NCBI RefSeq assembly: GCF_028687615.1
Contig: NZ_JAQTZU010000007.1
Coordinates: forward strand, 93,447-157,446
Length of the DNA: 64,000 bases
Direction: 5' to 3'
Source of the DNA: Methylovulum sp.
Lineage (GTDB): Bacteria; Pseudomonadota; Gammaproteobacteria; Methylococcales; Methylomonadaceae
Position 1 is the first letter of the stretch. The number at the start of each line of letters is the position of its first letter. The notes under the pieces were generated by a model. It did not search any database and had not been told where the DNA came from. It worked only from the letters and a program-made list of their open reading frames with translations. Both the position numbers and the translations under genes were made by a program. Below are positions 10,777 to 56,128 of the stretch, piece after piece.

Positions 10777-10915
10777 ACTTTGATTGAACTTGGCATTATA
10801 TAGGCTTAACTGTATTGGCAACAAGCTATTATTTTGAAAATAACACTAGTTTCATTAATCAAGCCATTAAATATGTTATGCTTAAAAGTTATTACATAAT
10901 CGCCTTTCTTAAGAT

Positions 10916-10985
10916 TGTTTCATAAGTGCTTGCATAGAAATGGAATGCCCTGCCCAAGCTTTTTGGGCAAGTGCTTATGGGGAAA
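10916..10985. repeat. Solo hairpin related to the palindromic MITE-like family (see 45918 and 55533)
   Basis: GTTTCATAAGTGCTTGCA...AAATGG...TTTTGGGCAAGTGCTTATG resembles the hairpin-B half of the other copies. Confidence 0.65.
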
Positions 10986-45917: not shown

Positions 45918-46082
45918 TATTACAATCCCATAAGTTCTTGCACTACATCCTAATAATACTAAAGCAAGAACTTATGGGATTGTAATATCCATTCAATAAG
46001 TTATGTGTGTTTCATAAGTGCTTGCCTCAAAAGTTTGGTTAATAAATATTATGCCCAATGCAATCACTTATGAAACAATCAA
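45918..46082. mobile_element. Palindromic MITE-like element, two-hairpin copy 1
   Basis: 24-bp perfect hairpin arms 45918-45941/45964-45987; second hairpin GTTTCATAAGTGCTTGC 46009-46025/46060-46076; inverse orientation of the 55533 copy. Confidence 0.85.
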
Positions 46083-46117
46083 TATAATCGCTTAACTTCA
46101 ATTCACAGGGATTTACC

Positions 46118-54758: not shown

Positions 54759-55004
54759 ATGGATTCAGATAATAAAATACCTTACGGGAAGGTCTCAACG
54801 GCGGAAGAATTAGGGGCGCTGATACGCCGTCATCGTAAAAGCCAACAGGTACGCATTAACGACGTGTCTGAAATTTCCATGCTGGGCGAACGGTTTATTG
54901 GCGAATGTGAACGCGGCAAAGCCACCTGCCAAATTGGCAAAATATTCAAATTATTGGCCTGCCTTGGGCTTGAAATACGCGTGGTGCCGAGGGGCGGCAA
55001 GTAA
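54759..55004 (+). CDS. HipB-like XRE family antitoxin/regulator
   Basis: AEELGALIRRHRKSQQVRINDVSEISMLGERFIGECERGKATCQIGKIFKLLACLGLEI. Confidence 0.85.
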   Translation: MDSDNKIPYGKVSTAEELGALIRRHRKSQQVRINDVSEISMLGERFIGECERGKATCQIGKIFKLLACLGLEIRVVPRGGK

Positions 55005-55264
55005 TGGATGATGAGCTGAATGTATGGTTTGAAGATCAGTTAGTCGGCTATTTATGGCGGAATAGCTTTAATATCATGGCCTTCCGCTATGCAGAAGAAT
55101 GGCTTGCCAGCGGTTTTCCCCTATCTATCAGCTTGCCGTTGCAAAATGCAGCCTTTTCAGCCCAAGCATTCATTGCCCATCGTTTTTTTGCCCATTTGTT
55201 ACCGGAAGGGCAGGCGCGGGAACGGCTTGCGTTAAGCATCGGCCAGCAGAAGAATCCTGATAAT
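55004..55264 (+). pseudogene. HipA N-terminal domain fragment, fused in frame to a Phd-like antitoxin
   Basis: DDELNVWFEDQLVGYLWRNSFNIMAFRYAEEWLASGFPLSISLPLQ...FFAHLLPEGQARERLALSIGQQKNPDN then MGITTVSSREFNQ. Confidence 0.8.
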
Positions 55265-55522
55265 ATGGGCATCACAACCGTTTCTAGCAGGGAATTTAAC
55301 CAAGATGCGAGCAGGGTAAAACGGGCTGTCGTGAATGGGCCTGTCTTTATTACCGACCGGGGTCATCCGTCGCATGTTTTAATGACCATTGAAGACTATC
55401 AAAAAATCACGGGCAAGCAGGAAAGCATTGTCGAGCTACTGGCAATGCCGGACGCTGCCGACATTGATTTTGAACCGCCACGCTTAAATAAAGGGCTTCA
55501 TCTGCCAGCGGACTTGTCTTAA
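55265..55522 (+). CDS. Phd/YefM-family antitoxin (probably starts at the internal ATG)
   Basis: MGITTVSSREFNQDASRVKRAVVNGPVFITDRGHPSHVLMTIEDYQKITG; stop overlaps the original vapC ATG (TAATG). Confidence 0.82.
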   Translation: MGITTVSSREFNQDASRVKRAVVNGPVFITDRGHPSHVLMTIEDYQKITGKQESIVELLAMPDAADIDFEPPRLNKGLHLPADLS

Positions 55523-56128
55523 TGGTCATGTATTAATTGTTTCATAAGTGCTTGCACTGGAAATGGTCTGTGTTCGCTAAATTTTTTGGCAAGCACTTAT
55601 GAAACACACATAACTTATTGAATGGGTATTACAATCCCATAAGTTCTTGCTAACAGTACCATCAACATACTGTGCAAGAACTTATGGGAAAATTAATACT
55701 TGCTGGACACCCACATCGTTTCTGAATTGAGAAAAGCGAAGTCAGGTAAAGCGGATAAAAACGTGGTGGCGTGGGCCAATACTGTTTCGGCAGCCAGCCT
55801 TTTTCTATCGGTGATTTCTATTTTGGGAATCGAAACAGGTTTGCTTTTGGTTGAACGGCGGGATCCGGCACAAGGGGCAATGCTCCGTTCCTGGCTCAAC
55901 AGCCAGGTATTGCCGGCGTTTTCTGAACGCATTCTTGCGTTTGACACCGCTGTCGCATTTTGTTGCGCCAAACTTCATGTGCCTGATCCCCGCTCAGACC
56001 GAGATGCCATCATCGCAGCCACGGCGCTGGTTCATGGGATGACTGTGGTGACCCGAAATGTGGGTGATTTTGAGTCTACCGGTGTTGGACTCTTGAATCC
56101 CTGGGAATTTATCGGTTCCGTCGAATAG
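55522..56128 (+). pseudogene. VapC/PIN toxin split after codon 3 by the MITE-like element; remaining ORF 55700-56128
   Basis: Excision of 164 bp plus one TA restores ATG GTC ATG TAC TTG CTG GAC ACC CAC ATC = MVMYLLDTHIVSELRKAKSGKADKNV. Confidence 0.82.
55533..55696. mobile_element. Palindromic MITE-like element, copy 2, inserted in the vapC start codon region
   Basis: TTAATTGTTTCATAAGTGCTTGC...GCAAGAACTTATGGGAAAATTAA terminal inverted repeats, flanked by TA (55531-55532) and TA (55697-55698). Confidence 0.82.

What the first reader, a model, noticed from the sequence alone, without database searches (positions are those of the whole stretch)
55522..55705. 164-bp MITE-like element inserted at a TA dinucleotide inside the start of a vapC toxin gene
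Removing 55533-55696 and one TA copy restores ATG GTC ATG TAC TTG CTG GAC ACC CAC ATC, giving MVMYLLDTHIVSEL, with the usual TAATG overlap to the antitoxin. The element ends are imperfect inverted repeats (TTAATTGTTTCATAAGTGCTTGC versus TTAATTTTCCCATAAGTTCTTGC). TA duplication is typical of IS630/Tc1-mariner-type transposition, so this looks like a non-autonomous element silencing or re-wiring a toxin. The only in-frame start left is TTG at 55700, right after an in-frame TAA.
Basis: partly seen in the sequence, partly recalled or inferred. Interest (0 to 1): 0.72.

Follow-up and report, generated by a model that had tools for sequence, protein, structure and literature searches.

The report
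Two-hairpin mobile element disabling toxin gene
A 164-bp mobile DNA element with no genes of its own, present in dozens of copies in this methane-oxidising bacterium, has jumped into the first codons of a self-targeting toxin gene and most likely switched it off; this is a clear example of a familiar kind of event.

Summary
The window lies in a Methylovulum genome (GTDB genus, Methylococcales). A same-genus genome (G010) holds the uninterrupted phd-vapC pair, with one TA where the window has TA-164 bp-TA. The element belongs to a family with about 40 places in this genome. Full copies are two hairpins joined by a short linker, bounded by TATTAAT...ATTAATA, and 13 of 18 have TA on both sides. 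The stems are kept by compensatory changes. Other copies also have natural empty sites in relatives. The own genome has no recognisable IS630 (DDE_3) transposase. A 1050-bp IS630 transposon in another assembly carries ends that match the element at 18-21 of 25 positions, so IS630-type mobilisation in trans is well supported but the actual enzyme is missing. The insertion leaves VapC with only a TTG start, whose SD-like GGGA is buried in a hairpin. The window's VapC also carries Gly at the position of the catalytic Glu42 of FitB/VapC and His in the DTN motif; two relatives have Glu and Asn. So it is a dead or dying toxin with an intact antitoxin. I find no support for 're-wiring'. New member of a known kind (RUP/Correia-like TA MITE).

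The parts
55531..55532 (+). TA target, left copy of the duplication
   Evidence: single TA at the same place in empty-site relative G010
55533..55696 (+). 164-bp two-hairpin MITE-like element
55538..55606 (+). hairpin 1 (arms 55538-55555 and 55589-55606, 18 bp perfect)
   Evidence: covariation in 18 copies, 98.0% of cells paired
55635..55689 (+). hairpin 2 (arms 55635-55650 and 55674-55689, 16 bp perfect)
   Evidence: covariation, 92.2% of cells paired
55697..55698 (+). TA target, right copy of the duplication
55522..55530 (+). original start of vapC (ATG GTC ATG); reading now ends at TAA 55534-55536 inside the element
   Evidence: same start in G010
55700..56128 (+). remainder of vapC (PIN domain, FitB-like), only a TTG start left; Gly at the FitB Glu42 position
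   Evidence: PF01850 1.7e-6
55004..55522 (+). chimeric ORF: HipA N-terminal part fused in frame to a complete Phd/YefM antitoxin (Phd from about 55265)
   Evidence: Couple_hipA 3.4e-17 and PhdYeFM_antitox 5.5e-12; 409-aa hipA intact in G009, G012, G018
54759..55004 (+). small ORF preceding hipA; no Pfam hit; its equivalent precedes intact hipA in relatives (HipB-like by position)
45926..46084 (-). second copy of the element family in the window
   Evidence: 82.5% identity

Best explanation
A non-autonomous TA-target element (a MITE made of two hairpins) inserted at a TA nine bases into vapC, duplicated the TA, and put a stop codon after MVMY. Transposition was most likely carried out in trans by an IS630/Tc1-mariner-family transposase that recognises TTAATTGTTTCATAAGT-type ends and is no longer found in this genome. 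The Phd antitoxin upstream is untouched. VapC can now be made only from TTG 55700, uncoupled from phd, with its SD-like GGGA inside hairpin 2, and the protein carries Gly in place of the catalytic Glu. The net effect is a disabled toxin beside an intact antitoxin, now drifting. Shown: insertion, TA duplication, copy number, conserved hairpins, empty sites, loss of start, residue changes. Inferred: the IS630 enzyme, loss of toxicity, and whether the insertion or the catalytic change came first.
For: Empty vapC site with a single TA in same-genus G010. 39 family places fetched from this genome out of the BLAST list and 100 end-motif matches against 0 in the control. 13 of 18 full copies have TA on both sides. 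A second site (proA-nadD) is spanned without the element in most same-genus genomes, and two further sites in at least two genomes each. Stem covariation: 52 double-changed cells against 16.6 in shuffles, 0/500. A 1050-bp IS630 element in G061 has DDE_3 at E 2.9e-28, and its ends and those of sister copies are 18-21/25 identical to the element's left end, where unrelated positions in the same assembly's contigs nearly all stay at or below 15. Glu to Gly at the FitB E42 position and Asn to His in DTN are window-specific; G010 and G017 keep Glu and Asn. Glu42 is one of the catalytic acids in VapC (PMC3384007).
Against: No IS630 transposase (DDE_3) in the own genome, and none of the 20 same-genus DDE_3 loci examined carries these ends. 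The cousin with matching ends lies in another assembly (MAG BP5.bin93), and its best transposase copy is not proven intact. A TTG start could still give some protein. The window branch is only mildly enriched in amino-acid changes (7 N: 7 S against 3 N: 12 S on the G010 branch), so the gene has not decayed far.
Confidence: 0.85

Rival explanations
1. The element is not an IS630 MITE but a repeat moved by another enzyme (for example a TA-targeting IS5/IS427-type transposase or a single-strand HUH/RAYT enzyme acting on the hairpins); the TA flanks would be recombination cores rather than a duplication.
For: No IS630 transposase in the own genome. The element is dominated by hairpins kept by covariation, as REP/BIME-type elements are. 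From an empty site alone, TA duplication and TA-core joining cannot be told apart.
Against: A real IS630 transposon, TA-flanked, carries closely similar ends at both termini. IS630 transposase inserts almost only at TA and duplicates it (PMC2170065).
Confidence: 0.12
2. The insertion re-wires rather than kills the toxin: VapC is still made at low level from TTG, with the hairpins tuning or processing the phd-vapC mRNA (as proposed for Correia/NEMIS and RNase III).
For: The frame after TTG 55700 is fully open for 142 aa. The transcript hairpins are very stable (-64.6 kcal/mol, z -9.85). Pairwise pN/pS of 0.14 with G010 shows no gross decay.
Against: Catalytic Glu replaced by Gly and DTN by DTH on the window lineage only. 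The SD-like GGGA (55686-55689) lies in the hairpin 2 arm. No promoter-like or terminator-like site.
Confidence: 0.05
3. Assembly artefact or mis-joined contig.
For: The genome is a 56-contig draft assembly.
Against: The element has base-exact boundaries with a TA duplication, the two flanks are collinear with G010, and the family is scattered through this genome and relatives at other sites.
Confidence: 0.01

Closest known systems
RUP (repeat unit of pneumococcus), proposed to be mobilised by IS630-Spn1 (PMC2229807)
   Same: Small, no coding capacity, TA target, ends similar to those of an IS630-family element, many copies
   Different: 107 bp, with an IS630 partner known in its host; here 164 bp with two hairpins, and no IS630 partner in the genome
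Correia/NEMIS elements of Neisseria (PMC2229807)
   Same: TA-flanked, terminal inverted repeats, long stem-loops in the transcript
   Different: Different host and different ends; here two separate conserved hairpins (comparison of layout rests on my own knowledge)
IS630/Tc1-mariner family (ISY100; PMC2170065)
   Same: TA insertion and duplication; about 25-bp ends suffice; G061 IS630 ends match at 18-21/25
   Different: No transposase inside the element; own genome has none
VapC/FitB PIN-domain toxins (FitB 2h1c/2h1o)
   Same: Intact G010 relative aligns over its whole length with FitB, E 7e-17
   Different: Window copy lacks MVMY, has Gly at the Glu42 position and His in DTN; antitoxin is Phd-type rather than FitA

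Membership tests
TA-type bacterial MITE | small, no protein gene, many copies in the genome | tested here: met
   164 bp; about 40 BLAST places, 100 end-motif matches
TA-type bacterial MITE | terminal inverted repeats | tested here: met
   31-nt arms 84% complementary
TA-type bacterial MITE | 2-bp TA duplication shown by empty sites | tested here: met
   vapC site in G010; proA-nadD and others; 13/18 copies TA on both sides
IS630-derived MITE | ends shared with an IS630-family transposon | tested here: met
   G061 IS630 elements, 18-21/25 identical for most ends
IS630-derived MITE | mobilising transposase in the same genome (supporting, not obligatory) | tested here: not met
   no DDE_3 match in G000; same-genus DDE_3 loci examined lack these ends
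IS630-derived MITE | moved in trans by IS630 transposase | not testable with these tools
   needs in vitro or in vivo transposition
REP/BIME (RAYT-mobilised) | no target duplication and association with a RAYT (Y1) transposase | tested here: inconclusive
   TA flanks at both ends argue against; RAYT in the genome was not searched
active VapC/FitB toxin | four conserved acidic active-site residues | tested here: not met
   Gly at the FitB Glu42 position (PMC3384007)
active VapC/FitB toxin | ribonuclease activity / growth inhibition | not testable with these tools
   needs expression assay

The most novel reading that the evidence does not exclude
The two-hairpin element is a composite of two single-hairpin MITEs that transposes as a unit, and its covarying hairpins have a selected role in mRNA processing at operon junctions; the vapC copy would then be a selected toxin-off allele rather than a chance hit.
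Probability: 0.07. Interest if true: 0.5.

Novelty: new member of a known kind. Interest (0 to 1): 0.27.

Why it matters
It documents a MITE family in Methylovulum for which I found no earlier description in the open-access papers searched. It comes with natural empty sites, stem covariation and a candidate IS630 source, so mobilisation can be tested directly. It also shows the expected asymmetry in toxin-antitoxin decay: the toxin is hit while the antitoxin is kept, here beside a second wrecked toxin (HipA).

Tried and rejected
Rfam at gathering threshold: nothing. DDE_3 in the own genome: none. Long TIR pairs as candidate autonomous elements (L077, L107-L109) hold ordinary genes, for example one that reads like hfq followed by one that reads like hflX, not a transposase. 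The 20 same-genus DDE_3 loci checked lack the ends. Exact end pattern in viral contigs: 0. Plasmid tblastn: only IS630 relatives under 60% identity. Promoter/terminator scan: none. Several deleted forms (hairpin 1 plus linker plus only the last bases of hairpin 2: L022, L031, L034, L041, L045) and single-hairpin forms in other genomes (L087, L128, L129) were seen but their origin was not worked out.

Full report
What is there. The window (contig C19 of a 3.49-Mb, 56-contig draft genome) belongs to the GTDB genus of Methylovulum: the same-genus handle G019 has a contig of 4,687,143 bases, identical in length to Methylovulum miyakonense HT12 NZ_KB913025.1. At 55531-55698 the sequence reads TA-164 bp-TA. 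The element has 31-nt outer arms and two perfect internal hairpins. It folds far better than shuffled sequence as RNA (z -9.85) and as DNA (z -9.27).

Empty site. A search of 60 relatives with the phd-vapC stretch found in G010 (same genus) two pieces that overlap by exactly one TA (query 262-529 and 694-1105; G010:C58 1683-1950 and 1949-2360). The natural G010 sequence runs from phd through the TAATG overlap into an open 141-aa vapC.

The family. The own genome gave 111 BLAST pieces, 39 places of which were fetched, and 100 matches to the end motif against none for its reversal. In full copies the order is hairpin 1, a linker like ACTTATTGAATGG, then hairpin 2. Subfamilies differ in the stem tips (for example TGCTTGC/GCAAGCA against TAATCGC/GCGATTA), on both sides of the stem. 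Counting pairs on 18 full copies gave 94.7% paired cells, 15 pairs and 52 cells changed on both sides (shuffles: 6.9 and 16.6; 0/500), and slid structures collapse. Relatedness of copies inflates shuffle statistics, but the slid controls and the double changes between subfamilies still show that the stems are kept. 13 of 18 full copies have TA on both sides and the other five have it on one side. Judged by mechanical ORFs and my reading of the neighbouring proteins, the other 17 appear to lie between genes, such as proA and nadD; the vapC copy is the one clearly inside a gene.

Other empty sites. A query of flanks from three other, non-toxin copies (one TA kept) found the proA-nadD site spanned without the element in most same-genus genomes, and the other two spanned in at least two genomes each.

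Who moves it. IS630/Tc1-mariner transposases insert at TA and duplicate it (ISY100, PMC2170065), and RUP of pneumococcus is the precedent for a MITE sharing ends with an IS630 element (PMC2229807). The exact end pattern over 84,980 species genomes hit 39 stretches, mostly methanotroph assemblies. In one assembly of another kind, MAG BP5.bin93 (G061), the ends enclose IS630 transposase remnants (L093, L082, L099) and one 1050-bp TA-flanked element with a 327-aa open frame (L164) that matches DDE_3 at E 2.9e-28. Its ends and those of its sisters match the window element's left end at 18-21 of 25 positions; in a scan of the same assembly's contigs nearly all other positions stay at or below 15. 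One end in that table (L093 R) was printed as 19 bases only, so its 16 matches are out of 19. The own genome has no DDE_3 protein, and the 20 same-genus DDE_3 loci checked do not carry these ends. So the link is to the family, by its ends; the actual enzyme was lost, or lies elsewhere.

Effect on the toxin. Reading from the original ATG 55522 now stops after four codons, at TAA 55534. The only in-frame start is TTG 55700; the SD-like GGGA (55686-55689) lies in the right arm of hairpin 2, and coupling to the phd stop is lost (sequence; inference on expression). The remaining frame matches PIN and, in G010, FitB. The window has Gly where FitB has Glu42, and DTH for DTN; G010 and the more distant G017 have Glu and Asn, so the changes are on the window's lineage. 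Glu42 is one of the catalytic acids in VapC (PMC3384007). Branch counts (window 7 N: 7 S; G010 3 N: 12 S) hint at relaxed constraint but are too few to prove it.

Surroundings. The ORF just upstream (55004-55522) is an in-frame fusion of about 75 residues of the HipA N-terminus, about 13 further residues of HipA, and a complete Phd antitoxin. In G009, G012 and G018 hipA is an intact 409-aa gene with the same small ORF before it. So two neighbouring toxin genes are wrecked here while the antitoxin side survives.

Verdict. Observation confirmed and interpretation supported: a TA-type, IS630-related MITE, with an uncommon two-hairpin layout, has inactivated a vapC. Ordinary in kind, well documented, modest interest.

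Noticed in passing
window 55004-55522: In-frame chimera of a truncated HipA (about 75 + 13 residues) with a complete Phd antitoxin; hipA is intact (409 aa) in three same-genus genomes.
   Followed up: yes
window 45926-46084 (minus strand) and 10914-10979: Another copy (82.5% identity) and a partial copy (77.6%) of the same element family.
   Followed up: partly
L022, L031, L034, L041, L045: Copies with hairpin 1 and linker but only the last 9-12 bases of hairpin 2, as if hairpin 2 had been cleanly deleted.
   Followed up: no
L035 (495-656), L023, L021, L026: Several copies lie a few bases from the start codon of a neighbouring gene (for example between proA and nadD), so the element end forms the 5' untranslated region.
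   Followed up: partly
L087, L128, L129, L073: Single-hairpin relatives with similar ends (TATTAATCGT..CATAAGT) in other assemblies; the two-hairpin form may be a fusion of two such units.
   Followed up: no
L108 (G000:C19:2300-5500): Two copies of the family flank genes that read like hfq and hflX, about 2 kb apart.
   Followed up: no
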